A stretch of 64,000 bases of DNA from NCBI RefSeq assembly GCF_963675165.1, contig NC_087377.1, forward strand, positions 9,813,122 through 9,877,121. Direction: 5' to 3'. The translations under genes and the position numbers were made by a program. The notes beneath the pieces were generated by a model, which worked only from the letters and a program-made list of their open reading frames with translations, had not been told where the DNA came from and did no database searches. This DNA is from Halichondria panicea. Lineage: Eukaryota > Porifera > Demospongiae > Suberitida > Halichondriidae. This document shows, piece by piece, positions 13,439-59,511 of this stretch. The first letter of the stretch is position 1, and the number at the start of each line of letters is the position of its first letter.

Positions 13439-13516
13439 GCAGCCACCAATAGTTAGTGCTAATGGTACAGAGAGCAAATTACTAATTTTTATACATGAAA
13501 GTGAAGTTAGTATAAT

Positions 13517-14120
13517 CAAAATTGTTTGCTAAACACGAACTAGCCACAAATATATAAGCCATAACTCTAGACAGAAGCTTTTTGTTTCAAATCCACAAAT
13601 CAAAAGCAAAGCTATTACTTGTATCTGTATTGCAACCATAGAACATTTCCAACAATAATGCAAAATTGTTTGCTAAATACGAACTAGCCACAAATATATA
13701 AGCCATAACTCTAGACAGAAGCTTTTTGGTTCAAATCCACGAATCAAATAAACTAAAAGCAAAGCTATTACTTGTATCTGTATTGCAACCATAGAACATT
13801 TCCAACAATAATGCAAAATTGTTTGCTAAACACGAACTAGCCACAAATATATAAGCCATAACTCTAGACAGAAGCTTTTTGTTTCAAATCCACGAATCAA
13901 ATAAACTAAAAGCAAAGCTATTACTTGTATCTGTATTGCAACCATAGAACATTTCCAACAATAATGCAAAATTGTTTGCTAAACACGAACTAGCCACAAA
14001 TATATAAGCCATAACTCTAGACAGAAGCTTTTTGTTTCAAATCCACGAATCAAATAAACTAAAAGCAAAGCTATTACTTGTATCTGTATTGCAACCATAG
14101 AACATTTCCAACAATAATGC
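13517..14120. repeat. 153-bp tandem satellite, about four copies
   Basis: Units begin with aaaattgtttgctaaacacg and end with catttccaacaataatgc. Starts are near 13517, 13661, 13814 and 13967; units 2-4 are about 153 bp, and the first is 9 bp shorter through loss of part of aatcaaataaactaaaagc. Copies differ at only a few positions, so the array is young. An open frame overlapping its right edge is probably chance. Confidence 0.9.
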
Positions 14121-24900: not shown

Positions 24901-27900
24901 CATGATAGCTCAGCTTGGTCTGTTCAGAGGCATCCTTCTTTAGCCTTGTGTGTTGGCTTTTAATATTCACTTTCTCCCCCTCCCCAGGACTACCTCCTAT
25001 GACCCTTGCAGCTGATGATCGCCACTTGTACTGGAGTGGAGGGTCGGGAGTGTTTGGGGTACTGAGGACTGACCCCACCTCTCTCATTATTGTGTCTTCG
25101 ACAGGCGCCCCTTTTATACTTACCCCCCTCAGCCCCGGAGCACAGCCACTTGGGCGTAAGTGTGTGTGAGGGGGGGGGGGGGATCTAGTGTACAATATGT
25201 ACATATCAAGCAATGAGTGCAGTTTCTGGTTATAGCTTAAAACTAGTACTAGTCACGCTTATGATGTATGCATTTTGCATACACACAGGACGCGAGTGTC
25301 TGTCTCCTCCATTGACTGTCATGATGAACCGGCCGATCCCTATGGTAGTAGACAAATCCAACACCACGTTGACTCTGGAGTGGGAGGAGCCAGTACTGTC
25401 ACCCGAGTGTAGCGATGTGTTTAGTTTCCCCCCTCTCAGCTACACTATTGTCGTTGCCAATCCTCAAATAAATCCATTTTTATTTCTTAATATGGTAAGG
25501 ACATGCACTTTCAATGTGACAGTTTGTTGATTGGCTGTTTGAATATAATTATATGCATGACAAGAAGAGTGTCCATATTGTAAGGAGGTTGTGTTCTAAA
25601 TTCAAAACACGTAAGTAACTAAGTGAAATTGCCTCATACCCTTCTGCAAGCAAAATTATTATTCAACATCCCCGTTTTAATTGCAAAGACAGAAGTAACA
25701 CGTAAGTAACCAAGTGAAATTGCCTCGTATACCCTTCTGCAAGCACACGGCAAAATGTTCAATGAACTAGTCTATAGAGCAACTACAATTACAACAGCTG
25801 ATAAAGAATGCAGACTATTCCAAAATGGCCGATTGCCTTGGCGATATTTCTCGACTCTATAATTTATGATGTTCTCATGCAAAACATTTCATTCATCTTG
25901 AAAACTTTGAATATGCTTGAGGTGCCAATTTATGAGCCATATTTCCCTGAGGTGCCAATTTATGAGCCATATTTCCCTGAGGTGCCAATTTATGACCATT
26001 TAATTATTATTATAATACACGTATATATATACACAACATTAAACCATAATGATACACAGTACAACAAGATTATTCTGTTGAAGTGGTGGTCTGCAACAGT
26101 ATATAAGCGTTTAAAACTTGAGATTGCGGTGGCTTGAACTTGCTCTGAGAGCTGATTCTCTGATGGTAAAAAGAAGTTAGAATTAATGTTGATGACATCA
26201 GTCTGGCAAATAGTTGCACCAGTATAGGTGCTCTCTATCTGTGCATGTCGCTCTTTGAGCAAGTCCCCTGGGAAGATTCGATTATTCTTGAAGTTTTACA
26301 TTGTGCTTGAGTTTCGCCTTTCGCTGCTAGTACTGGGAGGTTGAAGACATCAACTTAGTATATATAATAGGTCATTGTATAGTTCCACTCCCACTGCTTT
26401 GCGCACATTCTGAGTGCTATAGTGCGCTTACAATCTTTTCTAGGTGGGGGTCCCAAACTTGACAGGCACATTCCAGATGAGGTTAAAACCAGTGTCAGAT
26501 ATAGTTTGATTGGTGTGTTGAGATTCGAGTAGTGGTAGTACAGGTATAGTCTTACTCTATAGGCCTACCGGTTTCCTTACCTTATAGCATTGTTTCTTAA
26601 TGTGGGTTGACCAGCTACTTAATTTTTGTCCTCCCCTAAATATACACAATATACACACACAGGGATTAACTTACGGCACACAGTTTGAACTGACAGGGCT
26701 CATGCCCTTTTCCGAGTATTCTGTAAGTTTGATTGCTACAAACCTGTTCACCCAACGAAGATTTTTCTCTGACAATCAGCTCGGAATCTTTTTGACGGGT
26801 GAAAGCACTCGTACTCTTTCAGGAGGTAGGACGTCATACACATCACACACACACACACACACACACACATGCATGCACACACACAGTTCCTGACGCCCCC
26901 ACCATTCTCAGTACCAATGTATTTGGTACTTCCAGTGTAGAGCTTAATTGGACTCGTGGGGCTATAAGAGGCAATGAAGATACTGTTAGCTACTTTGTTC
27001 TTTCGGAGACTGGTCAGGGGACAGCTGTCATGAATGAGATCATCATCGTGGAGAGCTTCGTAGGGATACCACCTGGCAGTGACCATGAGTTACAGGTAAG
27101 TATTAATTTATCATTTCCCACATAATTATGACCTATAATTATAGTCTCTCTCATGCATGGCTAGTGATGTGTGCTGAATGGGTATAATAATTATGTACAT
27201 GCATATGCATGTGCATGTTCACTGTTTATTTGCAGGTGTTGGTGTCTAACGGAGTGTTCAACAGCTCAGCTGCTTGGGTCCGTGTGTCATTCTGGCGACT
27301 GGCACCCCGCCCCTTTTCAGAGTCTGTATCAAACTCCGCCCTTACTGCACGGCTCACATTAGAGCCAGTTACCCACTCCGACATTACGAGTGTTGCTGTA
27401 CAGGTATAGGTGCTCATTGTGTGTATACTGTTTCATAAATTAACTTATGGTGGATAGAAACGTTTATGTGTGTATGTGTAGTGTACAATAATAACGATGA
27501 CATAGTATGTACAGAGATTGTATGTGTACAGGGTCACCCCCATGCATGCATGAGCACTTCAGTAGAAAGCCAGTGTATATATACAGCAGTATAGAACCTC
27601 TGAATAAAGCAAAATTTGTGAGTAGAATTTTTGTCCTTTTTTCGGGGTTGTTCTCTGGTGGGAGGTCCATTCAATTTGTCATATCAACGACTTTTAGCAT
27701 GTACATATAGTGTGTATGAAATCCAAGATAAATAAAGCTGCAGATATGAAATGTGGGTGTGGTTCCCTGGTTGTCTGTAATAAGAGGCAGTTTTGCACAG
27801 AGTTAGTCAGTTGGGAGCATGAAGCTTGTCCGCTGTCCCGAATCAAGAAGGTTTGCTCGTAGGAGATTGCTTTTGTGTACTTATAATTATAGTGATTTCA

Positions 27901-30123
27901 ATATGTGCCATATATAGCTAATGTCCTTTATAGAGAGGTTGTCCTTTGGTGGGAGCTATTATTACCTATACCTATTATTACTATTTTCTCCTTTCGTCAT
28001 ATACGGCCGGGGACCGAGGCTTACTAGATAATTATGCAGACTTTACTTCCTTCACCCCACCCCACCCCCATGCAGTATTGTGAGGTTTCTGCTCCGAGCA
28101 CCAACTGCAACTGTCCAGACGGCTCCAAATGAACAGAGTTCCAAGATAGAGAAGCTCCTACCTCCTTTGAGTTCCCCATCACTGGTCTGCAGCCGCACAC
28201 TTTGTACTGTGTTCAGAGTGTGGGTCAGTACCGGGAGATACCCGGGAGGACGGTAGCAGGAGGAGAGGTTACTCCTGGACTGGGACATGCCGAGGAGGAA
28301 GCAAGAACTCTGGGTGAGGACAGCTGTGTGTACTGCTACATGTAACTTTGAGTTAGGACCGTCCAATTTCAAATCTTTGAAATATACATGCAAAATAATG
28401 ATGTGCATACGTGATTGTTTTCTGATTGAAATGTTTGGAAAAATCATGAGCCTCAAATGGTGAATTAGACCTGTTTTTAATTTTGTTTTTAGACTGTCAG
28501 AGAGCACACTTACTTCTAACAAAATCTAAACATAAATAATTATATTGTTTAATGGCTGCAAGCAGTTCTACAGCTAAACATCAACTTTACCTCATATTTG
28601 TGGCCATGCATTTGGGACACAGCACACTATATACCACAGCACACTATACTTAGTACCACTTCCGTTGCCAATCCCTCTCTCTTCATACATGGTGTACCTA
28701 GTCTAGACCATTATTATTATATAGACCGCAATCACATTGTCAAAGTTGCTGGAAAGCACCAAAAAGCGTGGAAACAAGCGAGCATGTGAGATGATGGATC
28801 CGTTACAGCATCATTAATTTACATACACATTTTCTATACAGGCCTATTCATAATAATTATATACGGTGCAAGCAATTGAGGGTCATTAGGGTTCAAGTTT
28901 TATGTCAGTGATATTGTATCCATGTAATTGACATTCAAGTGTTAAGATGTCGATCTGTTTGTGAAACCTGGTTAAGTAAAAGTATACAGTAGATGCTTGC
29001 ATATTTACACGGTTACAGAGTAATTATATATGTCCTTCTGTATGTATAGTCATATGGTTTTGAATTTTAAATAATAATGTTTTTGTAGTCAAGAGTAATA
29101 TCTGTATTGTTTTTTCTCCCCCATACAGCAACCCTGTCTCTTACTGCTACTCACAACAACCAACCATTGTTTTTCACTGATGTTATCTCACAACCCGATG
29201 GTTCAGGGTTCATAGTTATAATCTGTCACGGCCCTGGTAATCTTATGTGGACTAGCTCAAATAGAGCCCTCATACCTACCAACCAGAGTGGAACTTTGTT
29301 TCAAATGTTTGACAGTATTGGTGAACAAGTCTCTTTGATATTCCGGAGTTTTTCTTTTAATGAAGTGGCAGTGTATACGTGTGAGAGCTCTTTGAGCGAT
29401 ATCCTATTACTGAGAGTGTCCTTGTCACTACCTGTGAGTTCTGTTATAGGGTAAATAGTGTCAATTTGTCTTTCAGGGAACTTAATTCAGCTTTATAGTG
29501 CCCGGTTACATCATCATGTATAGTGCATGTATAGGCCCTTGAGGACAAGGATCCTAATGACAGCTCAGTTTCCACAAGTGTGTACATATAATGGGCATTG
29601 TAATTGTGGGGGTATTCTACTATAGCGCAGCCAACTATTCAACAATAATTATGTACTAATCACATTCCTCCCAATGACAAATTAGCAAAATTTGGTCTTG
29701 GTTACCATGGAAAAGAACACCTGCATGCATATACTGCCATGTATTAACAAACAATGACTAACAATAGCCTGTTACATATTGTATTCTATAACAGGTGCAC
29801 TCATTTTACAATTCCACCACATACACATGCATGCATAGCTGATCCAGCTGTCTTCATTGGTACCACAGTCATAAAGGTTCTGGAGGGGGATTCAGTATCT
29901 ATCGAGGCAGGTATTTACTCTTCTAGCCCGTCTGAAGTACAGTGGTTTCTTGGAATGCAGTTTCTTGATATTGGTAGCGACCCCCAGCTTTCTCAGACCA
30001 TCGAGGGGAACGTTTACACACTAAACATTGCTAGTATCAACAGTCAACGAGTGGGCCTGTACTCTGTCGTGGTGAATCGCAATGGGCAGACTGCTTTTGA
30101 TGATGTCACCGTTTCATATTCAT
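18928..30123 (+). CDS. RTK A, ectodomain exons (FN3, YWTD, Ig)
   Basis: Exon 1 (18928-18993) encodes a signal peptide, MRLLIGAIICLLATLQ. Further exons: 21645-21803, 21872-21998, 22068-22218, 22334-22492, 22570-22725, 22828-22932, 23797-23863, 23931-24130, 24240-24457, 24533-24831, 24988-25155, 25289-25494, 26444-26481, 26663-26825, 26887-27095, 27236-27403, 28076-28313, 29129-29450, 29795-30123. They encode about three FN3 modules, a YWTD-type propeller segment (LAYDWVARVVYYA, GFLYWIQSDRTS, DDRHLYWSGG), more FN3 modules (LNWTRGAIRGNED) and two Ig-like domains (WTSSNRALIP, YTCESS; VQWFLGMQF). FN3 with YWTD recalls Sevenless/ROS1. Phases join the Ig exons to the membrane exon at 31274. Apparent insertions near 22490 and 22671, a phase clash at 26481/26663 and an in-frame TGA at 28130 interrupt the frame. 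Confidence 0.7.
19015..19294. mobile_element. Tigger/pogo-like MITE in RTK A intron 1
   Basis: The left end ctacaacctcgattatccgg and right end ataatcgaggttttactg are inverted copies flanked by TA, the signature of Tigger-type pogo elements. About 280 bp with no transposase. It lies 21 bp beyond the donor of the signal-peptide exon. Confidence 0.8.
21158..21350. mobile_element. Inverted-repeat element in RTK A intron 1
   Basis: Ends cactctagtgtgaagccaga...ggctctcatctac and gtagatgagagcctctc...ttagattagtg form inverted repeats of about 36 bp around a loop of about 120 bp. No coding capacity. Confidence 0.7.
21380..21570 (+). repeat. GCATGCGC-core dispersed repeat, copy 1
   Basis: Runs from a stretch with ctttctatctacttcc through ttttactgagcat and atccaaagcccccag to gcgcatgcgcaagcag and ggatcaaggctaa. 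Closely similar copies lie at 34650-34916 and, reversed, at 63766-64000. The end resembles the agcctcgatcc-type end of the palindrome at 40172-40271. Confidence 0.8.
22976..23701. mobile_element. 725-bp inverted-repeat element in an RTK A intron
   Basis: Left end tactcaggtaggttaaggc and right end gccttaaccaacctgagta are inverted. Inner segments around 23235 (atcaaaagaaagctctta) and 23430 (aagagctttcttttgatac) are also inverted, so the whole unit can fold. It fills the intron between the exons ending at 22932 and starting at 23797. No transposase frame. Confidence 0.7.
25606..25744. repeat. Direct repeat pair, about 47 bp
   Basis: The phrase cacgtaagtaac followed by aagtgaaattgcctc and cttctgcaagca occurs at 25606-25652 and 25697-25744, in the intron after the FN3 exon ending at 25494. 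Confidence 0.65.
25919..25995 (+). repeat. 30-bp tandem repeat, 2.5 copies
   Basis: Units of gaggtgccaatttatgagcc plus 10 further bases, identical over the full copies. In one frame they read EVPIYEPYFP repeats, but the position is intronic in RTK A and no splice context supports coding. Confidence 0.75.
26840..26885. repeat. CA microsatellite abutting a splice acceptor
   Basis: A (CA)n run with a gcatgcat interruption directly precedes the acceptor CAG of the FN3 exon starting at 26887. It mirrors the arrangement at 2071-2094 in the mucin-like gene. Confidence 0.7.
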
Positions 30124-31273
30124 GTGAGTGCATGCTATGTAATAACGTACCTTGATCCTATACATGCATGCAATTTTCAGCATTGAATTTACTTGAGCTA
30201 GCTCATGCAGTGCAGATACATATAGGCACTGTTTAGGAGGTATCTTATGACTTAGAAGCCTCAGGGACTATATATGCTCACTGCGCTTGGGATACTATAT
30301 ACAACAGCCCCTATATATGCATGCAGTTTCTAAATACATGGATCATGCTTGCAGGGCCCTAAGAAGTGAATTGCAACAGTATATAAAGTTAACGAAATAG
30401 AGCACAGAGGGCGATTCACATCAATAACATGAGCATGCATGGGGAATGTATTGCACTGAAGCACAAGGGCTGAGTGCAATATAATTATGCCATGCATCCC
30501 GAGTGTGCGTGTCAGTATAATTAGTTTATATCCCGAGGGCATAGCAACATAACACTGTCTTATAGTAACACAACAAATAGAAGACAGAGACAACCCTATA
30601 CTTTAGACGATAATTGTTGTGCCAGTATAATTATGTCTGCAGCGTATAACATTGGTATGGACCAACGAATGGCTTGACAAAAAAGTGTGAGGCCAACGCA
30701 TGCACTACTGCAAAACAGTCTCACCCCACTTCTGCTGCTGCAAAACAGCTCAAGCCCCCAACAAAAAGAGCCGCTTCTAGGTGCTTAGTGCTATGGCCTA
30801 TTTTATATGGTGAAGCAGAATTGAAGGACCTATGTATAAGCCATACATGCATGCATCACGAGGACTAGACTAGGAACACAGAATTTTCATTATGATCATT
30901 ATGACTTTATGGTTAGTGCATTATGCTGCATATTGCACTTAGCAACAACGTAGCAACGGGATATAGCTATATAATATGCACTGGCATAAAAAGTATAAGC
31001 CCTTGAAGCTACATGTGCATGCATGACTCAAGTCTAATAACTTTTACAAGGGGAAAAAAACTGGTCGAAGTACAAAGTGGGCAGTACTATTGTCTCAAAA
31101 TGTTTTACATACAAAAACATGCAGTACGGTTAGATACAACTGACTTTTGTGTTGCCAACATTTTATTCATTATTTGGAGGTTTGTACTGTGTGTGTGCAT
31201 AAACGCTACGTGTATTCTGCTGATATATTTGCCTGATCATTTCCCCAAAATTCATGTATAAATAATTATACAG

Positions 31274-34200: not shown

Positions 34201-37200
34201 ACGCCTTAATTCGGCATTCCAACACTGCAATCTGATTGGGCTGCAACATTTCTGCAAAACCAGACATTGCAGAGGTGCCCAACTTCATCCAAGGTTGGGC
34301 CACGCCGGATCACTATAAGACTCATGCTTCACTTTCAGAGCCTTTGCTTTCATCCAACATGACGCTAGCCTCCTTCACTGGCCTGCTACTGACTTGCTTG
34401 CGCATGCACAAAGTTATTGGAGAGAAAATAATTATCCTGACAAAGTAGTTAAAGTCAAACACAAAGCTATTATAGTTAGCTAGCTATCTAGAGACAGAGC
34501 TGTAGATTTGTTCTACAGCTATTTTCTTTCTGGTATAGTGCAGTAGTATATAGTAGACTTTCATCAAAGCTAGTATTAGATGGGCGTGGCCTGTCCGTAT
34601 AGGCTCTTGTCAGCTTTCACTCCATTCAGGCAATTGTCATCCACACTGTTGCAGACTGTGAGTCTTTTGTTAACATAGCAGGCGAAGGGTATAGCTATCA
34701 GAATGCCATCACATGGGCTAGAATTGAAACCTTCAATGCAACTTTCTATCTACTTCCTTAATTCAATCCACTTCCGTTCGTTGTGACGTCATTGTTTTAC
34801 TGAGCATATACGATGTTATCCAAAGCCCCCAGAAACCGGGGGGAGATTTGGCGCATGCGCAAGCAGTTGTTACCAGGCCCACTTCCCTAATGAAGTGCGG
34901 CCTTGGATCGAGGCTAACATGAGTTAAACGTTTGTAGGTATTTTCTGTCAGAAAGCTGCTGTTCAAGATCTGTCATCAGATAGCTCTTGGAATGGCATAT
35001 CTTGCTCAAAACACATTCGTCCATCGAGACCTGGCTGCCAGAAACTGCATGTGAGTCACTGAATTGGTGTTTGCAGCATGCACGAGTGCACAGTATGCAT
35101 GCATGTGAAGCAGCTGTATGGTCATTTCACATGCTTAGGTCACAGCAAAAATATCATTATTACACTGACTGCATGTACATGGTATTTTAGGTTGGATTCA
35201 AATGGTGACGTCAAAGTGGGTGATTTTGGCCTTGCTGAGGATGTGTACAGTACTGGTTACTTCAGACAAAGTGATTCCGAGAGGGTCAAACTTCCATACA
35301 AATGGTTGGCACTGGAGAGTTTAAACGATGCCATCTTTAACGAGAAGACTGACGTGGTACGTACCATCAATGCTCTGAACAGCTTTTTGATGATTATTAT
35401 AGAAATAAAGAATGCAACATTTTATCATGCTCTAGACTGTGGTTTATGGACCATCAAAACTGAATTATTTGCTTGACATACTGTGTCTCCAATAATAGTG
35501 GTCGTATGGTGTGACCGTGTGGGAGGTCTTCAGTGGCGGCCGGATCCCCTACCCTGCATTGGACCCAATGTCTCTAGTGGCTCTACTCAGAGAGGGCAGG
35601 AGATTGGAGCCTCCTCAGAATGTTGCCTGTTCTACAGAAATGTATTCAGAGTGTTGATGAATTTCACAATTAACACGCAATTTATTTTAAGTTATGGCTA
35701 GCATTATAATTATTTGGCAAATAAGCTAATTGACCAAATGTTTAATTTAGCGTCTCAGGCACACGGCTATATAGCTATGACGTATAAAATTATGTTCCTA
35801 TATGATGCTTACATGCTCCTTTTCTCTCCTATTCTTCCATAAGGTGTCTGAGTTGTAGCAATAATTATTACAGGTTTTCCACTGGAGAGATAACGCTAAA
35901 ATAATTTGAAGTACCGGCTCAGCAGGTTAAAGTACATGTATATGTTTACAATGAAATTTTAGGCCAACAGTAGTTAATTCATGAAGCTTCAAAGCATTGC
36001 AGTTTAAAATTAAATCTCAGCTTAAATTGGCAAATCAATTCGCAAAATTAATAGTTATGTAGAACTGCATGCATTTATTCACTTAGTTATGTAAATTATA
36101 CTGAGCTGATTGTATTACTGCAGAGTCTCATTAATGGCTAGATGTTGGTGCGAGAATTCTGAAAACAGGCCATCATTCGATGAGCTAGCAGCTGAATTGG
36201 ATAGAGCTCTGACCACCATGGTTGGCTACGTGGAGCTAAACATGGAGCTAAAAGTTGCCATTCCCGAGGAGGAACTCGGTAAGCAATTGAACACAATTAA
36301 TGTTTCCTTTGAACGGAGCTAGACACTGTATTGGAGGTATTTTTGTGATCGTCATTGCTTTTTAGCAAGTTCAACAAATGTACTTTTGATTTTGCATAAG
36401 ATGTGTCCTGATTTTGTGGGTGAATTTCCTGTGAGTTAATTATGTTAGTGATGTATTAGTGTTTGACTGGTTGACACATAATCTTAGTCTGTTTCTCTCG
36501 GTAGAGTATGATTACGTTTTGTCACTTGAAGGACAGATAAAGCTTGCCAAGGCTTCCACTGAGGAGGTTGCCATGGAGACAAATGCTGCGTACGGGTTAA
36601 GAGCCAAAGATCAGTTACAAACTGAAGAAGTACTCGTGGAGGCTTATGGAATAAGAAAAGATCTTGAACTGAACATGGAGATAGTTGCAATCACTGAGGA
36701 TGAATCCGGTAAACAATAATTGAAGGTGCAATAGCTACAAACTATAGGATTGGCCAGTGGTTTACTATAACTATGATAGAGCAATTTAAACAGATATTTA
36801 AACTGTCATAACTCATTGGAACTGACGATACAACTGAATTCTACAGTCCTTGTGTATGTATGTGGGACATACAAAATTGTAAAATTAATGCCGGTTTGTG
36901 TGTAGATTATAAAACCACAATTTTTTTTACTAACTATAGTAGAGTGGTTGGTAAGCTGTTTCCTCTAGGATATTCTTAATTCACTCATGCAGTTTCTAAA
37001 AACCATAACATTATACTCTGGCTTATTATTCTCAGATTTGCAAGCGCTTTCACAAACACCTCGTGGCTATTTCTTAGATAAACACCACAGCTCTTTTTTA
37101 AGGACTGTTGTCACAGTAGCTGTTGCACATCTGCAGCCCATGCAGCTTCACCTATATACTCAGCTACTACTCTGAAACTGTACATTGTAATGAAACGTAT

Positions 37201-37866
37201 ACGTATACATCAACAAATAATGCTGTCTTCTCTTTTCTAACTTCTATTTATTGCTGCAGTGGATGGACAATGTTGTAATAGGCCGTACAAACAAGTGACT
37301 GAGAGAGAGCTGTAGATTAATATGCGTGTACAGTATATAACTCATTGTGATTAGTAAGGCTTTTGTTTACAAAAAAAGTAAATTGGGATGAACCTCCCCC
37401 AGCAACTCCGAAAAGAGGACAAAAGCTCTGCTCTCATAATTGTAATTCTAAGTAAAACTTTGTAGTCTGTTTTGGTAAATTCAAGCTGACATGATTGTGT
37501 TTAGAGTACCTTCTGATTTTGCATTCATGTTTGCAATAGTTTTATAAGGACTGATTTTACATATATCTATTTTTCTGTTTTTCTGTAGAGTGTGACTTCG
37601 TCCTCTCGCCTAAAGAACAGATGAAGCTTGCTGAGGCTACGACTGAGGAGGTTGTCATGGAGACAAACGCTGCATATGGGTTAAGAGCCAGAGATCAGTT
37701 ACAAACTAAACAAGTACTCACGGAGACTAATGTCGCTTATGGGATAAGAAGTGAACAGGAAAATCTAGCCAAACGAGTTATTGAATTGGCCGACCTTTTC
37801 ACCAGTGAATCACAAAAACCACTACGGAATGGCTATCGAGGGTACAACGTTGATCAACACCACTAA
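31274..37866 (+). CDS. RTK A, membrane segment, tyrosine kinase and tail
   Basis: Exons 31274-31424, 31550-31584, 32024-32113, 32579-32662, 32755-32972, 34938-35050, 35191-35356, 35499-35641, 36124-36278, 36505-36708, 37589-37866 splice in one frame, about 545 codons. The first gives a membrane helix ([18 protein letters not shown]) with a CCVCIRRS stop-transfer. The kinase has the glycine loop GQGAFG, the lysine motif [42 protein letters not shown] and [13 protein letters not shown], all as needed for an active enzyme. The tail repeats a module with EYDYVLS/ECDFVLS and NAAYGLRA in the last two exons, plus GYVELNM, which are candidate phosphotyrosine sites. Exon sizes from the 35-nt exon through the 155-nt exon equal those of RTK B. 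A membrane receptor kinase is near certain; its ligand is unknown. Confidence 0.9.
32205..32430. mobile_element. Long-armed hairpin element in a kinase intron
   Basis: Arms of about 80-100 bp (agagagtattgaacgtaggc... and ...gcctacattcaatactctct) with inner arms ttgcacactgaccaatccaa and ttggattggtcagtgtgcaa. It sits between kinase exons ending at 32113 and starting at 32579. MITE-like, no coding capacity. Confidence 0.75.
33187..33417. repeat. Dispersed GC-rich short repeat, copy 2
   Basis: Shares its ends with 1520-1680 in reverse orientation: gaaggtttgggcgcgcgtaa at the left and cacccctgcccccccactag at the right. Confidence 0.55.
33654..33935. mobile_element. MITE with GC-rich terminal inverted repeats
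   Basis: Left end tcaatgcaaagccccactac and right end tagtggggctttgcattga are inverted, continuing into cctcccggg / cccgggagg. About 282 bp, in the long kinase intron of RTK A. Flanking sequence (tttccacatgatttatgaa on the left, cttctaaatcatgtcgaaac on the right) looks like a second, interrupted palindromic repeat, so the insertion appears nested. Confidence 0.8.
34650..34916 (+). repeat. GCATGCGC-core dispersed repeat, copy 2
   Basis: Reads from tgtgagtcttttgttaacat through tccacttccgttcgttgtga and gcgcatgcgcaagcag to ggatcgaggcta. It is the fullest copy within the window and ends 21 bp before the kinase exon at 34938. Confidence 0.85.
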
Positions 37867-41456: not shown

Positions 41457-44400
41457 ATGTCATTTTTTGTTTTGTTGACTGTCTTCATTGCTGTTGTAGC
41501 AGCTAACGAATGTGATAAAAGTGAGTGCACTCAACGAGTTGAACTATTGTCGATATAATTATACATGAAATGTGGTCGACCCTAGCAATTGTTGTCATGA
41601 GAAATATAATTTTATTCATGAGCAGTTTAATACCGTACCCTAGCTAACTCTGGCAGCTTATATAATTAAACTGAGTTGTTTTGCAGATGCGTTTGTGACC
41701 AATCCCTTAAGTATGGAGGCTCGTCTTGGAGATTTTGTGAATTTCACTTGTGATATAAGTACAGATACATTTTTGCATCGGACCTTCAGGCATTACATGA
41801 TAAATGGAGTCCCCCGCGATTTCAACACTTTCTCTGATGGAAATGATATGTCAGTTATCTATATCGAGTGCTCGAGTATCATGTGCATAATGTTGTTGTC
41901 TTCTACACTACAGGTATTATAGACGAGCTATAGGTGGTAATGGTAGTGTGGTTAACACTCTCTTAATTGAAGGAGTACAGCCGTACCATGCTGGACAATA
42001 TCAGTGCTTTGCTACCTCTGATGGAACTAATTGCATTCGGTTTTTTTCCGCAAAAGCTACCTTAAGTATAATCGGTGAGTAAGATCCGGTTACATTTAGC
42101 ATTGCCACACATGTATGTTAAATATCACTGTTTATTCTCTGCCTCAGGTGAGCCTGTTATCGATTCTCCCACGGCGGAGTTTAGTGGTTTTACTCTGGCA
42201 AACCTCAGTGTTATCCTCACTATAACTGGTACCACCCCTACCGTGCAAGTGTACAGGGAGGGAGTCCTAATCGACAACCCTAGAGTGAAGATATGCTTTG
42301 CTAATACACAGTTTGAGATGATCATCAGTGACCTGCAACGGTCAGATGCTGGACAATACAGAATTGTGGCCACTAATCATTTCGATATGGCGGAAACTAC
42401 TATCACAGTTGTACCAATTGGTAAGCAATTCTGTACATGTTATAATTATGTGATGTGCATGTGGACTTTGTTGTCGATTTTCAATACATGATTGCAATGG
42501 CCTCCTGAGTGCTTGCATTTCTTGTGCATGTGTGCATGGTTGTTGTAGTAAAATATTTCTAATTGGCTGAAGTTTTGTATCTTCGCAATAATTCCAGTTC
42601 CCTGAAAGCACAGCAATTTGTGTGCAATTAACTGCATGTTACAAGCATTTTATTTAACTGCATGGGCATGAGGTATCTATGTGTTATAGTGTCCCAAAGC
42701 TCGAGGGCTTTAACCCGAGGGATGAGGGACACTATAACCATAGGTACCGAATGCACATGTTCTAACTGATTTAGATCCCAAAACCTATTGGCTATACTAG
42801 AAATGCACTAGCTTAGCAACAGTCAACCTATATAAACAGCCAACCTAGCGACTGCATCATTATTCTTTTGAAAACTAATATCTGAAGTTGGCATCTCTGT
42901 GTCTCTACTAAATCTGTGGTCTCTATTCAAGTCAACCCTGTTCCTCCACCTCAGTTTGATGGACAAAATTATAGTCCTAGCTCCACCCACAAAACGGAAA
43001 CATCCAGCTCCTCCCCCAGTTTTGCAGCAAACAAGCCCATTACACTTCCCAAGAAACGAGCGGCTCGTACTACTCTCACAAAGCGAAAGGAGGACACATA
43101 TAAGCTATAATTTGCAGCAAACAAGCCCAGCAAACGAGCGGCTCCTATACTACTCTTGAACAAAGCGAAAGGAACTTTAGGAAGAAGCCAAAGCTATAGA
43201 ATCCCAGCACTTCCATACATCCAGCTCCTCCCCCATGCAGCCTTGCAGCAAAAAAGCACAGCACACTGCCCAAAAAACAAGCGTCTCCTACTACTTTCGA
43301 ACAAAGCCAAAAAAAGAAACTAGAGCTTCTCTCTTTCATTCTAGTTTTGTTATTATAAAATTATTACTAGACAAAGCATCTAGCTACAATAATTTTTATG
43401 TTATTACATGTGTATCTTCTTGTAAATCACAATACAATGTACAATGTTGTAGTTTGTAGCCCAGAGCAATCTATAGTACCGGTACTATAGCTCATAGTTC
43501 CCTGCAAAATACACTCAAATGGGATCTAATGCATGTTTAGACCAAGTGCCCACTGGGTCAATTAGATTGATATAAAAAGCACATCTGCTCTAGCTCGTCA
43601 ATGCTATACAAACATGGACAGCCGACAATATTTATAGTTATATGTCTAAAGGGCACAAAAGTGATAATTTGTTCATTATAATTATATTATCCCATTTTAT
43701 GTCGTAACTGCTCCCTTTAAAATTAAGGCAGTTTTTGGTACTTTCAAAAGCAGCGATACAATGTTTGTGTCACTGGTTGAAAGTCTCTGTTTTTCCTGCA
43801 GGTCCTGATCGTCCTGTGGTGGACCTAATGGACGCGCAGGTGTCTGCCTATGGGACAGCTGCCACTCTCACCTGCTCCATTCAGACTGAGGCACAAGAAG
43901 ATTTTGTGGAATTTTTCTGGAGAGATACACAGGTAGCTAATCTGTCATGCAAATGAACACTGTATTTTTAATGTCTTTAGTGTAGGTGGGTTTCAATCCT
44001 ACTCCGTCCTGTAGTTTGCTTAAATTAGGATACGTGTACATACCATATGTACTTGATTAAACGCCCATCTCGTTTAAACCCCATGGTAAAAAGCTCTGTT
44101 TTTGTCAATAAACGCCCATGTTAAATAATCACCCGTGTATGGGGCGTGGCACTGTGGGTGGAGCTGAATTAGCACATGGAACCAGTTGCAAGCATGGCAG
44201 CATAGAATAATAAACTAATGATGGCAGAGAGAGAGATACCGGCACAGAGAGAGAAACCCACTCCTATACGACTTAAGAGCTGAGAGCAGCCAAAAAGAGC
44301 ATAATATAACTGCTGCTGTGCAAGAGTTTGGAGTAGACATGGCCAATAAACGCCCATTTCGAATAAGTACCCATCTCGTTTAAACACCCCCTCTACAGAC

Positions 44401-45685: not shown

Positions 45686-47638
45686 GTGTATTCCAGTTGT
45701 CTGCTCGACAGTTGCAATACGACGAAAACTAATAGCTTCGTAATTCTATAGGCTTCTATATTGCCACGTTCTTTTGGATTTTGATTCGTGGATTTGCACT
45801 TTCTCGAGTAATGGCTGAGTTTTGAAAGCTGGTTGCAGTCTCTTTAGAATTTTTATAGTGTCAAAAACTGATATTCATTCTTACAACAGTGCTATACAAT
45901 CCTTCTTTAATGTCTGACCACAATGAGCAATATCTGCTTCATCTTCTCTTTTCTTCATCAGCATTGTTGGAAGAAGGCAGTGATTAATTGATCTACTGTG
46001 GTTCTTTTTCTGCTCATTCTAACTCAGCTACTAGAAAATTTTTTTGTTCAGGAGTGTGAACAAGACCTCTCGGCTGTTGCTGCTACTGATTGCGCCGCAG
46101 ACGCCCCTGCATGGTCGAGAGATGAGTTCATGAGTTAATCACAACCTTTCATGTTTATTGCATTCTTCGAGACCACAAATACATGGGCTTGATAAGTTTC
46201 GATAATGGTTTTGTCGCAGTAGGTATAATTACGAAGTCCTGACTCTCTCGGGCCTCGGCCACCATAATGTTGTGGTTGTGCTTATGGTATTTATACACTG
46301 TCAGTCTGAGGAAATGTAGTAAATTGAAAAGAATAGTAGCAATAATTATTAGTGAGATAATCTACCAAGCAGTCTGCCCTAAGACCCCCAAGTTTTCAGT
46401 ATTTGCAAGACAAGACAGGAAATACATACCACAAGTATTTTAATGGTATTCATAAGGATGACATCACAAAAACATTGTTTTATAATGAAATTCATAATTA
46501 TATAATGAGATTCATAATGATGACACAATAAAACTCTGTCAGATTGTAGTGAAGGGTGATTTTTTCTGAATTTCCAAAGCTCATAACACAGACCATTTAC
46601 TGAACTAGAACCTGTTACTAGGAGATAAATTAGTTCAATATGGAATGTATTGACTCAGCAAGTTTGGACTGGATTGAGATAGTGTGAACAGCTTGCGCAA
46701 ACTCTCAAAGTTAGCTCATTCTGAATAGTCTCTGTGGTTGGTGGAACTCATGGCTGCATATCTCCAGATGTGAAAGGAACCAGTGACTGCCTAAAGTATC
46801 AACTAGTGCATCTGATGCATGTGCATGCTTAGCAGCAAACTAGAAGGCTTCAAGTCATTCATGAAGTGTTCTATGCTATTGCCAAGTTGTGTATTTATTT
46901 CAAAGTTTGTGTAACTGCTTTGCAAACACCATTCATTTGTATGGCATTTACCTTGATTATGTTGTAATTTAGATCCTTTTGATTTGATCAACCAATTTTT
47001 AGCTTGCTACGTTGATGGTGAACAGCTTGCTCAAACTCTCGAACTTTCCGCAATCGTTTTCACAACTTAATGCCAGTTTGACCCAAATTCATATTTTAAA
47101 GTGTTTATCGTATGTTAAACTGTCTTCTTATTACATATTTCAACTTAGATAGCTCTAAAAACCTTTACTTTTATCAGAAACAAAGAAAAACTGTTTTCAT
47201 TAATATATTCATGAGGCAACTTGTAGCACTTCCTGTCTTACAACATTTGGGGTCTTAGGGCAGACTGAAGGTCTATATTTGTGAATCCAAAGCAAGCTAG
47301 AAGATAATAAACTTAAAATTCCACTGAAGATGTGATAATAATTATCACATCTTCAGTGGAATTTTAAGTTAATTTATCCATAAGAAATGGTTGCTAAGCC
47401 TTCGAGAATAATATAAGTTATACAATCTTACACAAAAAAGCCGATAATTACCGAGTTTTTATCCATTATACTGTAGCAATTTGCCCTGCTATCTTGGATT
47501 ACAATACAATGGAAAGTTTGTTGACAAATGAAACTATTGCAACTTACACTTGTAATGACGGATTCAGCCTTGCTGGAAATCCTAATAGGATATATGATAC
47601 TGGAAAGTGGACAGGCGCGGAACCTATGTGTATAGAAA
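41457..47638 (+). CDS. RTK B, ectodomain exons (Ig x3, FN3, sushi)
   Basis: The start at 41457 opens a signal peptide (MSFFVLLTVFIAVVAA). Exons 41457-41520, 41687-41849, 41914-42074, 42148-42420, 43802-43932, 44464-44620, 44760-44886, 44992-45182, 47477-47638 are in phase with GT-AG borders. They encode three Ig-like domains (FVNFTCDIS to HAGQYQCFAT; LQRSDAGQYRIVA; TLTCSIQT to GGYTCVANNSRG), an FN3 module (RTVTWQQPGNS) and one sushi domain (AICPAILDY, TYTCNDGFSLAG, KWTGAEPMC). Combined with the exons from 47850 the coding length is 2,796 nt, exactly 932 codons with stop. That exact frame is strong support for the model. Ligand unknown; Ig-bearing sponge receptor kinases are known from other demosponges. 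Confidence 0.88.
42672..42748. repeat. Small palindrome
   Basis: Arms of about 23 bp (ggtatctatgtgttatagtg and cactataaccataggtacc), in the RTK B intron after the second Ig domain. Confidence 0.65.
44041..44447. mobile_element. 407-bp MITE with AAACGCCC ends
   Basis: Left end taccatatgtacttgattaa, right end ttaattaagtaaatatggta, each followed inward by acgccc or its complement. Internal aaacgccc motifs repeat. It occupies the intron that splits the third Ig domain of RTK B. Confidence 0.8.
45260..45364. repeat. Palindromic element
   Basis: gtataggttt...gcaagaggggtgtacagc is mirrored by gctgtacatccctcttacat...aacctatac around a CG-rich centre. It lies in an RTK B intron. Confidence 0.65.
45605..45830 (+). 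repeat. Dispersed GAGG-ATACGGTA repeat with GT microsatellite
   Basis: Begins aggcgtaggcacgagggata, contains an uninterrupted (GT)n run at 45640-45682 and ends near attttgattcgtggatttgc. Related copies lie at 31610-31760, 39544-39760 and, reversed, 60865-61050. Confidence 0.6.
46371..47266. mobile_element. About 900-bp element with inverted ends
   Basis: agtctgccctaagacc at the left and ggtcttagggcagact at the right are inverted copies. Inner parts show further imperfect inversion (acttcctgtctta on the right against aagacaggaaata on the left). It lies in the large intron before the sushi exon of RTK B. No transposase frame. Confidence 0.65.
47310..47370. repeat. Perfect 61-bp palindrome
   Basis: Two 30-bp arms with no mismatch around a single central base; the left arm contains ccactgaagatgtgataat. 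It lies 107 bp before the sushi exon of RTK B. Confidence 0.9.
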
Positions 47639-47849
47639 GTATAAGCCCTACATTACTGGGTCATAACCTGAAGCTATACTTGTCTATAACTGTCACAAGG
47701 ATAACTGTGCAGTGCTCTTAAAATTGTCTATAATAATATAATATAATTATATTGGTGTTGAGTTCCTTGAAGGTTCCTACGGCATGTGCATGTGTACATA
47801 ATTGTTCATCGCTATACCTCAAATGTTTACACACATGCGGTGCCTGGAG

Positions 47850-50800: not shown

Positions 50801-51162
50801 TGCATGTTATAGTTAAGATGTCCTGATTTTGTTTGTATTGAAATGTCCCAGGGAGAACTTTCCATGCCTATTGAAATTTTAGTCAGTTAGTGATGTCTTT
50901 GGTGTTCGACTGGTTGACACATTATCTTCTCCTTGCAGAGTATGACTACGTCCTCTCACCTGAAGGGCAGATGAATCTTGCCAAGGCTTCCACTGATGAG
51001 GTTGCCATGGATACAAATGGTGCATATGGGTTACGAGTCATAGATCAGTTACCAACTGAAGAAGTGGAACTTGTGGAGACCATTGTCACTTATGAAATAA
51101 GAAAAGATCTTGAACTGAATATGGAGCTAGTTTCTATAACTGAGGATGAACCCATGCAGTAA
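47850..51162 (+). CDS. RTK B, membrane segment, tyrosine kinase and tail
   Basis: Exons 47850-47988, 48058-48092, 48147-48236, 48370-48453, 48525-48742, 48923-49035, 49617-49782, 49902-50044, 50528-50682, 50939-51162. The membrane helix ([20 protein letters not shown]) and CCVCIRRSK border nearly match RTK A. Kinase motifs are complete: [58 protein letters not shown]. The tail has [17 protein letters not shown] and NGAYGLR. Eight consecutive exons have exactly the lengths of their RTK A counterparts (35, 90, 84, 218, 113, 166, 143, 155 nt), and some intronic sequence is alike, so the intracellular cassettes arose by duplication. The frame stops at DEPMQ, one exon earlier than in RTK A. Confidence 0.92.
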
Positions 51163-52578: not shown

Positions 52579-52866
52579 ATTAATGTGACTACTAAAAATG
52601 TATAAAGTGAGTAAAAACTAAATCTCAAACAATCATGCTATCAAGTTTATCTCACTTGACCAACCATAGGCCTGGTTGGAGGGCGGAGTACCTGAATGTA
52701 ATACCAAGGATTGAAATTCAGAAAACATAATTATAGTAAGCTACCTGTTCATAAGCCTGATTAGAAACCAATTGACTTTCTCGTGTTGAAGTCACTTTTG
52801 CCATGCTGGCAGCCTTAATTCGTATGGGATACATCATAATTATCATTTAATGGATTTTTTTCTCAC

Positions 52867-54941
52867 CTGTCCAATAGTAGTAATTTCATCATACAATGGG
52901 CTATTCGACTCTAATTGAATTTCTGTTGCAATAGTAGTAATTTCATCATACAATGGGCTATTCGACTCTAATTGAACGTCTGTTGCAATAGTAGTAATTT
53001 CATCGTACAATGGGCTAGCCGTGGCTCTCTGGTTTTCAGTTGATAGGCTTAGCTGTAGTCTCTTTCTCCTGACAATCAACACCACAACCAGGACGAGCAC
53101 AGTTAGACACATCAGCACCAGTATAACACCAACAATCCCACCAACTATAGGCCCAATGGATCCGGACACAGCTACAGGTGGAGCTGCATGCATGCATGTA
53201 AAGGAATGCAGCCTAAATTATAATTTGTTTGTTGCTCCATTTAAAAAGTTGCATATGTAACATTATACACGTACTATAATCATTGAATAATATTCGAGAG
53301 TGCCTTATACTATACCTATATAATATATATAGCTGCTTCCCAGTGAAGTTTTATAGCACCTATATATAGTTGGCTTTGTACAACTCACCTTCAGTTGGTG
53401 ACACACAGATGATTGCCTCAGGTTCGGTGCTCCAGACTGCAGCATTAGTGCAAGTGATATTGTTGGGTCCAGTCAGTGAGAGTCCATTGTCACACTGGTA
53501 AGACAGTACTGTTCCCTCCAACACTGTCTCGTTCAACCTCTCATAGTCTACTATAGCACCATTGGATGGCTCCTCGGGTAGAGAGCAATTGACTATATTG
53601 GAACAAAAGTTCATGAGATAAAAAAAGGAAAGGACAATTAAATTATGGTGCATGGATGATCGTACCTGGGCTCTCTCTGCACACCAAACTCCCAGGATTT
53701 TCCACCCACTTTCCCCTACCCTCCACATTAGTGCGTACTGGTCCTCACATCAAAGGGGAACAGTCGCTCGTCACAGCGATAGGTGACCCATGAACTCAGT
53801 GAGAAGGGTGGTGTTCCACCATTGATATCCACACTGCCTCTGTACGGTGCAGCTGGAGAGCCACAGGTTAGCTCTGTGAGGAGGGGAACTAGTACTAGTC
53901 GTGACAGTGATTCAACCTTACCCGAGAAACAGACGTAAGTAGTGGGGTCAGGTGACCATCGTCCCTCACTCTCGCAGGCTGCTGTTACTGTCTCTCTATT
54001 GCAAGTGAAGCTAAGGGTTGATCCCACTAGTGCAGGTAGTGGAGGAGCACCATTGATAGTCACTCGATTGGCAGGTGGTGGGTTGGAGAGGCAGGTAACT
54101 ACATCATTATATACTGAGAAACTGAGCATAATTATTTAGAACTAACCAATAGAATGAATCATCACCATTACATCACTACTAGCTATAGAGCCAGCACAAA
54201 TCACAGCTTTGCTGGTCACATTGTAAGGAGAGTTGTAAGAGACAATTATCTGTGCCGAGGTAGTCTCCACGGTGACTGGTGACCCGGAGAGAGGTGTTGG
54301 GGAGATGGTGAGGACATAGCTGACAGGCACACCACTAGTAGAGGAGGGAGGGTCCCAGTCCAGAGTGATAATAGAGGAGCTGGGCTGGTTTTGAGTGGAG
54401 GATATTATTGTGTTCAGTGGAGGGGAGGGTGGATCTGTGGGTCCATTTATAAATCAACAATTTCGAATAAAAAAACTCACCAGCTGCCACAGTGATAGTG
54501 AGGGGACCCTCTTGTGAGCTCTCTCCCTCACATTCCACCATAGTACCCTCCACAGTGGAGGCCTCAGACAGTGAGGTGAGAGTGGCAGTGACCATTCCTC
54601 CACTGGAGTCAGTGAGAACACCACGAAATGCTGGAGTACCTTGTGTACTATCAGTGTTGCTGGTACTTACAGTAAAGATGTACCTAACTCTTTGTGGGAG
54701 AGTGATGCTCCATCGTATGAAGCTACCAGGCAGAGTGCAGGTGAAGGTGACAGTGTCATCAGCACAGGCCACAGTGGGATTGGGTGATAGTATGGCTGCA
54801 AAAATAGCTATAGACCGTACCCATTGTTGTTTTATAAACTATACCAGCTATAATAGATCTAGCAAGATATACTTTACATTAATTACCTTCGACTTGCCAT
54901 AAAGATGTTAAAAACACTAGACTAAGTGTGACAGCAAACAT
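52867..54941 (-). CDS. Ig-FN3-sushi receptor with YDEI tail repeats
   Basis: Exons, in transcript order: 54941-54887 (signal peptide MFAVTLSLVFLTSLWQ), 54795-54481 (Ig-like, VTFTCTLPGSF), 54434-54147 (FN3, ITLDWDPPSS), 54098-53922, 53873-53666 and 53592-53389 (three sushi domains, e.g. LSFTCNRET, WVTYRCDERL, VLSYQCDNGLSL), 53183-52867 (membrane helix IVGVILVLMCLTVLVLVVVL, then RRKRLQ). The cytoplasmic part has three copies of SPLYDEITTI at 19-residue spacing. Inner exons are phase 1-1, the symmetric class favoured in exon shuffling. The 53873-53666 exon is one base too long and breaks frame near 53738. No kinase is seen, and the 3' exon after 52867 is not located. YDEI resembles the pYEEI consensus bound by Src-type SH2 domains, so a docking receptor is plausible but inferred. 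Confidence 0.82.
52885..53012 (-). repeat. 57-bp tandem repeat encoding YDEI units
   Basis: Plus-strand units read gcaatagtagtaatttcatc followed by the complement of the PLYDE codons and most of ctctaattgaa. Two complete units and a third partial one lie in the cytoplasmic exon, near-identical at DNA level, so the motif array was made by recent in-frame duplication. Confidence 0.85.
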
Positions 54942-56232: not shown

Positions 56233-56246
56233 TCGTACGTATACAG

Positions 56247-56423
56247 AGCATGGTGAGTGAGATCACTAAGATGCAAGAGTTCCACCACCCTCACGTCATG
56301 TCCCTGATTGGGGTGTGTGTCAACGCTGGACCTGTTGTTTCCATGGTGATGCCATATATGGAGTCTACTGGACTACTTGAGGAAAGAGGGTCAACCCTAG
56401 AGTTGGCAGAGGGAGAGGATTAG
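56247..56423 (+). pseudogene. Orphan tyrosine-kinase exon, broken
   Basis: Encodes [20 protein letters not shown] and GPVVSMVMPYM, the helix-C to hinge part of the kinase, then shifts frame through loss of about 8 nt where A and B have ACNxACGGG, and stops at a TAG. It starts inside the equivalent of the 218-nt exon of RTK A/B. Residues are a mix of A-like and B-like states, so it probably derives from a third paralogue. No flanking kinase exons are found. Confidence 0.85.
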
Positions 56424-59232: not shown

Positions 59233-59511
59233 TACCGTATAGCGGGTATATTTCGAGGGTGCATGTTCATGGTTTTCGCTGATCTAGCATCTACCACGAG
59301 CATTTATACCCACGAATTTAATAAATATCGCATGCATAGTGATTTATACCCACGAATTTAATAAATATCGCATGCATAGTGATTTATACCCACGAATTTA
59401 ATAAATATCGCATGCATAGTGATACATGCTGCAGAAAGGCTGCTATTTCGCGAAAATTAAATCCGCAAAAATGTATACCCTCGAAATAAATATTATACCC
59501 GGTATACGGTA
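59233..59511. mobile_element. TACCGTATA palindromic repeat with internal tandem
   Basis: Ends taccgtatagcgggtatatt and tatacccggtatacggta are inverted. Inside, three copies of a 40-bp unit (catttatacccacgaattta then ataaatatcgcatgcatagt) lie at 59301-59340, 59341-59380 and 59381-59420, the last two identical. Related in its ends to the elements at 40333 and 52358. Confidence 0.8.

What the first reader, a model, noticed from the sequence alone, without database searches (positions are those of the whole stretch)
52867..53183. Kinase-less receptor tail with three YDEI motifs on a DNA tandem repeat
The cytoplasmic exon holds SPLYDEITTI three times at 19-residue spacing, built from a near-identical 57-bp repeat. 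Y-D-E-I is close to the pYEEI consensus for Src-family SH2 domains. The spacing between motifs (15 residues from I to the next Y) is wider than a classical ITAM. Next to two receptor tyrosine kinases this could be a substrate or docking receptor in an ITAM-like but distinct signalling scheme.
Basis: partly seen in the sequence, partly recalled or inferred. Interest (0 to 1): 0.72.

Follow-up and report, generated by a model that had tools for sequence, protein, structure and literature searches.

The report
Kinase-less receptor with tripled tyrosine motif
A sponge-like gene next to two receptor kinases appears to encode a cell-surface receptor that lacks a kinase but whose inner tail carries the same likely signalling-adaptor docking site three times, copied by a short DNA repeat; it looks like an unusual member of a known kind of signalling tail, and the gene may be damaged.

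Summary
Minus-strand exon 52867-53183 encodes a strong transmembrane helix and a 68-residue tail in which SPLYDEITTI occurs three times, 19 residues apart, on a 57-bp tandem repeat. It is the last clear exon of a receptor gene (signal-peptide-like start, Ig/FN3-like exons, three CCP-like exons, one above the Pfam cutoff). No kinase match lies on its strand; two receptor kinases lie on the other. Its membrane-proximal CCP is a paralogue of the neighbouring kinase receptor's (6e-6).

Best reading: a multivalent phosphotyrosine docking tail. LYD suits Src-type kinases, YDEI lies between Src (YEEI) and Nck (YDxV) SH2 sites, and ~20-residue spacing recurs in nephrin, LAT and EGFR (PMC9333988). Nephrin, with three YDxV motifs, is the nearest working analogue, not a shown relative. 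The ITAM spacing is not met.

Lead: candidate downstream exons carry [ST]NxAY[GE], also found in the kinase receptors' tails; tentative. Against function: CCP exon 53666-53873 has a one-base frameshift, and the downstream exons are weakly supported. No transcript, orthologue or binding data could be obtained. Most likely a new variant of a known kind; a decaying gene is the main rival.

The parts
54887..54941 (-). exon 1, signal-peptide-like (MFAVTLSLVFLTSLWQVE)
   Evidence: Open frame, GT donor, phase 1; signal peptide judged by eye, no predictor run
54481..54795 (-). exon 2, all-beta, Ig-like by eye
   Evidence: GT-AG, phase 1-1; no Pfam match at E up to 1; single-sequence model pLDDT 53.6, strands only, fold matches not informative
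54147..54434 (-). exon 3, FN3-like
   Evidence: GT-AG, phase 1-1; weak Pfam fn3 15 bits, below its cutoff of 25; not found at E up to 0.01 in the joined protein
53922..54098 (-). exon 4, CCP/Sushi-like
   Evidence: GT-AG, phase 1-1; Pfam Sushi 18.4 bits, below its cutoff of 20.7 (query also held part of exon 5)
53666..53873 (-). exon 5, CCP-like by eye, with a one-base frameshift inside
   Evidence: Splice sites intact but length 208 breaks the frame; first part open in one frame, last part in another
53389..53592 (-). exon 6, membrane-proximal CCP/Sushi, paralogue of the kinase receptor's CCP at 47488-47652
   Evidence: Pfam Sushi 2.5e-8; tblastn 6e-6, 37% identity over 57 columns to 47488-47652; BLASTP of the pair
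52867..53183 (-). exon 7, transmembrane helix and tail with three YDEI motifs
   Evidence: splice sites; hydropathy and repeat units
52872..53017 (-). 57-bp tandem repeat, 2.6 copies
52745..52813 (-). candidate exon 8 (AASMAKVTSTRESQLVSNQAYEQ), in phase
   Evidence: Phase 0 in and out, GT donor; acceptor AAG is atypical: 0 of the gene's 6 upstream acceptors have A at -3. Tentative
52633..52691 (-). candidate last exon with second SNQAY (TPPSNQAYGWSSEINLIA*), out of phase with exon 8 as it stands
   Evidence: SNQAY shared with exon 8 with three silent differences (read); E8 against E9 shuffle p=0.0024. Tentative
50938..51162 (+). C-terminal tail exon of neighbouring kinase receptor 2 (YDYV, TNGAYG), for comparison
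36501..36719 (+). C-terminal tail exon of kinase receptor 1 (YDYV, TNAAYG), for comparison

Best explanation
It is a type I receptor without a kinase, whose tail is a multivalent phosphotyrosine docking strip. Inferred steps: ligand or cell contact clusters the receptor through its CCP/FN3/Ig-like outside. A Src-type kinase, or the neighbouring receptor kinases, phosphorylates the YDEI tyrosines. Each pYDEI then binds one SH2 adaptor or kinase of the Src or Nck type. Three sites 19 residues apart give valency 3, so output (adaptor clustering, perhaps actin) rises steeply with phosphorylation, as for nephrin. The 57-bp DNA repeat is how the valency was raised and could still change it. Shown: exon, transmembrane helix, three motifs, repeat, no kinase match on the strand, CCP paralogy with the adjacent kinase receptor. 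Not shown: transcription, phosphorylation, binding, disorder, function.
For: Strong transmembrane helix followed by RRKR and a tail with net charge -6 and 3 tyrosines. Six consecutive introns with GT-AG ends and phase 1 (phase after exon 5 read in the frame that follows its frameshift). LYD fits Src kinase preference for I/L/V at -1 and D/E/S at +1 (PMC10065799, passages). ~20-residue spacing between SH2 sites in nephrin, LAT and EGFR (PMC9333988 section 14). Nephrin's three phosphotyrosines cluster with Nck/N-WASP; one- and two-phosphotyrosine forms did not cluster (PMC4238058, passages). A phosphorylated tyrosine repeat of a choanoflagellate receptor tail bound a Src SH2 in vitro (PMC3584944, abstract and passages). 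Kinase receptors adjacent.
Against: Frameshift in exon 5: the receptor is open only if exon 5 is skipped (possible, flanked by phase-1 introns) or the base is an error. No transcript or orthologue evidence. +3 Ile is not the V of YDxV, and +1 Asp not the E of YEEI; Src kinase prefers Phe at +3. P at -2: the passages seen do not give its effect. The paper that notes the ~20-residue spacing also says SH2 footprints suggest it may not be a structural need, and that extra Nck and Grb2 sites did not boost actin polymerisation in its viral protein, which speaks against valency as such. The choanoflagellate tail was not seen to bind Src in cells. YDx[IV] is not enriched in the window (13 observed, shuffle mean 18). 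No relative of exon 7 in viral or prokaryote collections, uninformative for an animal gene.
Confidence: 0.47

Rival explanations
1. Decaying gene: the receptor is a pseudogene or a broken allele, and the 57-bp repeat is neutral slippage in a relic exon.
For: One-base frameshift in exon 5, and candidate last exon out of phase with exon 8. An isolated kinase fragment at 56241-56420 suggests relics in this cluster. The repeat copies are too alike to show selection (3 differences between copies 1 and 2).
Against: The 6 introns between exons 1 and 7 keep GT-AG ends, and exons 1-4, 6 and 7 are open; exon 5 could be skipped in frame. A single-base change could be an assembly error or an allele.
Confidence: 0.25
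2. YxxPhi sorting tail: YDEI serves clathrin adaptor (AP) binding and endocytosis; tripling raises internalisation.
For: YDEI fits Y-x-x-bulky hydrophobic (pattern recalled; three copies); nephrin's phosphorylated YDxV sites also couple to endocytosis (PMC12203975, passages).
Against: D/E at +1/+2 and L at -1 are better explained by kinase and SH2 preferences; AP motifs are seldom tripled at fixed spacing (recalled). Both could hold.
Confidence: 0.12
3. ITAM-like tail that recruits a tandem-SH2 (Syk-type) kinase.
For: Repeated YxxI motifs; Syk-related proteins are reported in sponges (PMC9486129, passage).
Against: 15 residues between motifs against 6-8 (up to about 12) in ITAMs (recalled consensus); three evenly spaced singles rather than pairs.
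Confidence: 0.08
4. Chance open frame over a non-coding repeat.
For: Another tandem repeat at 25918-25999 gives EVPIYEPYFP in an open frame without splice or domain support that I could see.
Against: Transmembrane helix, matching splice phases and upstream Sushi exon.
Confidence: 0.04

Closest known systems
Nephrin (vertebrate IgSF receptor with three YDxV Nck sites)
   Same: Kinase-less type I receptor; three near-identical Y-D-x-[V/I] motifs; spacing 17 and 24 (from residue numbers in PMC9333988) against 19 here; FN3 domain outside (FN3-like here)
   Different: Ectodomain here has CCP domains and no Pfam-level Ig; Ile not Val at +3; motifs lie on a DNA repeat; no sequence relationship shown or searched for with a nephrin sequence
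Monosiga RTKB2 RM2 repeats
   Same: Repeated tyrosine units in a receptor tail; a repeat was phosphorylated and bound a Src SH2 in vitro (PMC3584944, abstract and passages); the ectodomain also has an SCR/CCP domain
   Different: About 80-residue units, six copies, in a receptor that has its own kinase; no binding detected in cells
ITAM receptors (e.g. the oyster Ig receptor CgIgIT2, PMC11999971 passage)
   Same: YxxI in a kinase-less tail
   Different: Spacing 15 instead of 6-8 between motifs (recalled consensus); no pairing
Neighbouring receptor kinases of the window
   Same: CCP-transmembrane layout (37% identical CCP for receptor 2); possible shared [ST]NxAY[GE] motif
   Different: Kinase domain absent; exon-7 tail shows no significant similarity to the kinase tails (0 of 3 at p<0.05)

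Membership tests
ITAM | YxxL/I-x(6-8)-YxxL/I (recalled) | tested here: not met
   15 residues between motifs
ITIM | [S/I/V/L]-x-Y-x-x-[I/V/L] (recalled) | tested here: not met
   P at -2 in all three motifs
Src SH2 ligand | pY-E-E-I consensus | tested here: inconclusive
   Y-D-E-I: +2 and +3 met, +1 Asp instead of Glu; binding not testable
Nck SH2 ligand | pY-D-x-V | tested here: inconclusive
   +1 Asp met, +3 Ile instead of Val; binding not testable
Nephrin family | Eight C2-type Ig domains plus FN3 outside (PMC12203975, passage) | tested here: not met
   One Ig-like exon without Pfam support, FN3-like exon, three CCP-like exons
Nephrin family | Three SH2-binding YDxV motifs in the tail | tested here: inconclusive
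   Three YDEI: number and Y-D met, V at +3 not met, binding not testable
Receptor tyrosine kinase | Kinase domain on the same strand after the transmembrane helix | tested here: not met
   tblastn with the kinase of receptor 1: matches in the window (E up to 0.5) are all on the plus strand
Sushi/CCP receptor | Sushi domain above Pfam cutoff | tested here: met
   PF00084 34.6 bits against cutoff 20.7, exon 6; one such domain only in the joined protein
YxxPhi sorting signal | Y-x-x-bulky hydrophobic in a cytoplasmic tail (recalled) | tested here: met
   Pattern only, three times; a very loose pattern
Monosiga RM2 tail | About 80-residue tyrosine-bearing repeats in a receptor kinase tail (PMC3584944) | tested here: not met
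   19-residue repeats, no kinase
Any of the above | Tyrosines phosphorylated and bound in vivo | not testable with these tools
   No protein data

The most novel reading that the evidence does not exclude
The locus is a receptor set in which kinase-bearing and kinase-less receptors share ectodomain modules and a docking code ([ST]NxAY[GE] plus YDx[I/V]). The kinase-less member works as a co-receptor or substrate whose signal gain is set by the copy number of a 57-bp DNA repeat, so that individuals could differ in signalling valency.
Probability: 0.12. Interest if true: 0.72.

Novelty: new variant of a known kind. Interest (0 to 1): 0.42.

Why it matters
If real, an early-branching animal built a nephrin-like, three-site phosphotyrosine tail by DNA repeat expansion, next to kinases that could phosphorylate it. 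That would make valency-dependent receptor clustering testable in a sponge, with a repeat that may vary between individuals as a natural experiment.

Tried and rejected
Own-genome search: no genome held. Relatives of exon 7 in viral contigs (18 pattern matches, 0 confirmed) and prokaryote genomes (183, 0 confirmed), and of a kinase exon in prokaryote genomes as a check for sponge carry-over (336, 0 confirmed). Structure of exon 2: pLDDT 53.6; the best PDB fold matches are mostly cupin-like, none at E of 1e-3 or better, and are not interpreted. YDx[IV] as a motif shared with the kinase tails: not enriched over shuffles (13 against a mean of 18), so not used as evidence. Similarity of the tail to the kinase tails: 15 comparisons, 7 with p<0.05 uncorrected, all 7 involving candidate exon 8; 0 of 3 with the exon-7 tail alone. 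The [ST]NxAY[GE] motif was defined after seeing it; 4 of its 6 copies are in paralogous kinase-receptor tail exons, so 6 against a shuffle mean of 0.10 (maximum 3 in 200 shuffles) overstates independence. The 30-bp repeat at 25918-25999 was considered as a second tyrosine-motif repeat and set aside. Literature: YDEI with SH2 as whole words, 0 papers. Nine other searches; in the titles and abstract starts listed I saw no sponge kinase-less receptor with such repeats, but most listings were capped: 15 of 555, 12 of 92 (13), 15 of 54 (18), 4 of 4 (19), 15 of 146 (20), 10 of 45 (34), 15 of 28 (47), 1 of 1 (48), 10 of 93 (57). The library lacks most subscription papers; the Amphimedon genome paper is not held. 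So this is not proof that it is unpublished. PMC3447736, PMC5043372, PMC8662651, PMC12018476, PMC4499191 and PMC7145657 were looked at by passages (one search found none of its terms) and add nothing used here.

Full report
Observation. The exon at 52867-53183 on the minus strand is open, has an AG acceptor and a GT donor at exactly the stated ends, and carries a 57-bp tandem repeat at 52872-53017. It reads as a transmembrane helix, RRKR, and a 68-residue tail (counted from RRKR) with SPLYDEITTI three times. Copies 1 and 2 differ at 3 of 57 bases. Copy 3 matches copy 2 for 31 bases and then ends in the splice donor. The motif triple is one duplication history, not three independent hits; YDE[IVLP] is expected about once in six frames of this window (shuffle mean 0.96).

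Gene. Upstream exons on the same strand give a signal-peptide-like start (by eye), an Ig-like exon (by eye; no Pfam match), an FN3-like exon (Pfam 15 bits, below cutoff), and three CCP-like exons, of which only the membrane-proximal one is above the Pfam cutoff for Sushi (2.5e-8; also the only family found in the joined protein without exon 5 at E up to 0.01). The six introns between exons 1 and 7 have GT-AG ends and phase 1 (the phase after exon 5 is read in the frame that follows its frameshift). Exon 5 (53666-53873) contains a one-base frameshift. Because its flanking introns are both phase 1 it could be skipped without frame loss, but the shift is a real warning that the gene may be broken, or that the sequence has an error.

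Kinase-less, and kin to a neighbour outside. A search of the window with the kinase of receptor 1 finds both receptor kinases and a fragment at 56241-56420, all on the plus strand. The joined kinase is a full Pfam tyrosine kinase (7.5e-77). Among its PDB matches (best 60 of 741 shown) the first row is a record named EGFR, followed by Axl (UFO), Met, Mer and Ret. Plus-strand frames upstream of the two kinases match Ig I-set (29748-30152, 2.2e-6; 42072-42488, 2.1e-7). The membrane-proximal CCP of the kinase-less receptor is 37% identical to the CCP just outside the membrane of kinase receptor 2 (47488-47652; tblastn 6e-6; BLASTP of the pair). So the two receptors, which lie tail to tail, share an ectodomain module.

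Beyond the stated end. Exon 7 ends in a consensus-like donor, so the tail may go on. A candidate exon 8 (52745-52813) is in phase and ends VSNQAYEQ; a candidate last exon has PSNQAYG in another frame. The two SNQAY codon runs differ only by silent changes (read; protein shuffle p=0.0024). The pattern [ST]NxAY[GE] occurs six times in six frames of the window: these two, and four times in the C-terminal tail exons of the neighbouring kinase receptors. Against this: exon 8 has an AAG acceptor unlike the gene's six upstream ones, the last exon is out of phase, the motif was chosen after the fact, and the kinase tails are paralogues of each other. If the donor of exon 7 is not used, the frame runs on through GQVRKKSIK to a stop. 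I treat the shared motif as a lead.

Mechanism. LYD suits Src-type kinases (I/L/V at -1, D/E/S at +1; Phe is preferred at +3, where this tail has Ile; PMC10065799, passages). YDEI sits between the Src SH2 ligand YEEI and the Nck ligand YDxV; neither consensus is met in full. The 19-residue spacing matches the ~20-residue spacing noted for SH2 sites in LAT, EGFR and nephrin (PMC9333988, section 14 read); the same section says that SH2 footprints suggest this need not be a structural constraint, and that extra Nck and Grb2 sites did not boost actin polymerisation in its viral system. In nephrin, three such sites cluster with Nck and N-WASP, and forms with one or two phosphotyrosines did not cluster (PMC4238058, passages). 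Six tyrosine-bearing repeats in a choanoflagellate receptor tail are proposed to serve the same kind of docking; a phosphorylated repeat bound a Src SH2 in vitro, though a complex was not detected in cells (PMC3584944, abstract and passages). By analogy the sponge-like tail is a three-site docking strip. ITAM action through a tandem-SH2 kinase is less likely on spacing, though Syk-related proteins are reported in sponges (PMC9486129, passage). Sorting by YxxPhi is compatible and not excluded.

Source. No tool named the organism. In another sponge, genes combining FN3 with Sushi, and Sushi with Ig-like domains, changed expression on exposure to microbial patterns (PMC6208332, passages), which would suit a recognition role; this is only context.

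Verdict. The feature is real sequence and most likely a receptor tail of a known working type, in an unusual form made by a DNA repeat. Its activity, and even the integrity of the gene, remain unproved.

Noticed in passing
window 53666-53873 (-): CCP-like exon with intact splice sites but a one-base frameshift: error, allele or decay.
   Followed up: partly
window 36501-36719 and 37585-37866 (+): Two successive paralogous C-terminal tail exons after kinase receptor 1; the second has CDFV where the first has YDYV but has two NxAYG motifs. Possible alternative last exons.
   Followed up: partly
window 56241-56420 (+): Isolated kinase-domain fragment similar to the neighbouring receptor kinases, probably a relic.
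   Followed up: partly
window 25918-25999 (+): 30-bp tandem repeat (2.8 copies) encoding EVPIYEPYFP in an open frame among receptor-like exons; may be intronic.
   Followed up: partly
window 59302-59423: 40-bp tandem repeat, three copies, 100% matches.
   Followed up: no
window 13512-14121: 153/306-bp tandem repeat, 96-99% matches, so recent.
   Followed up: no
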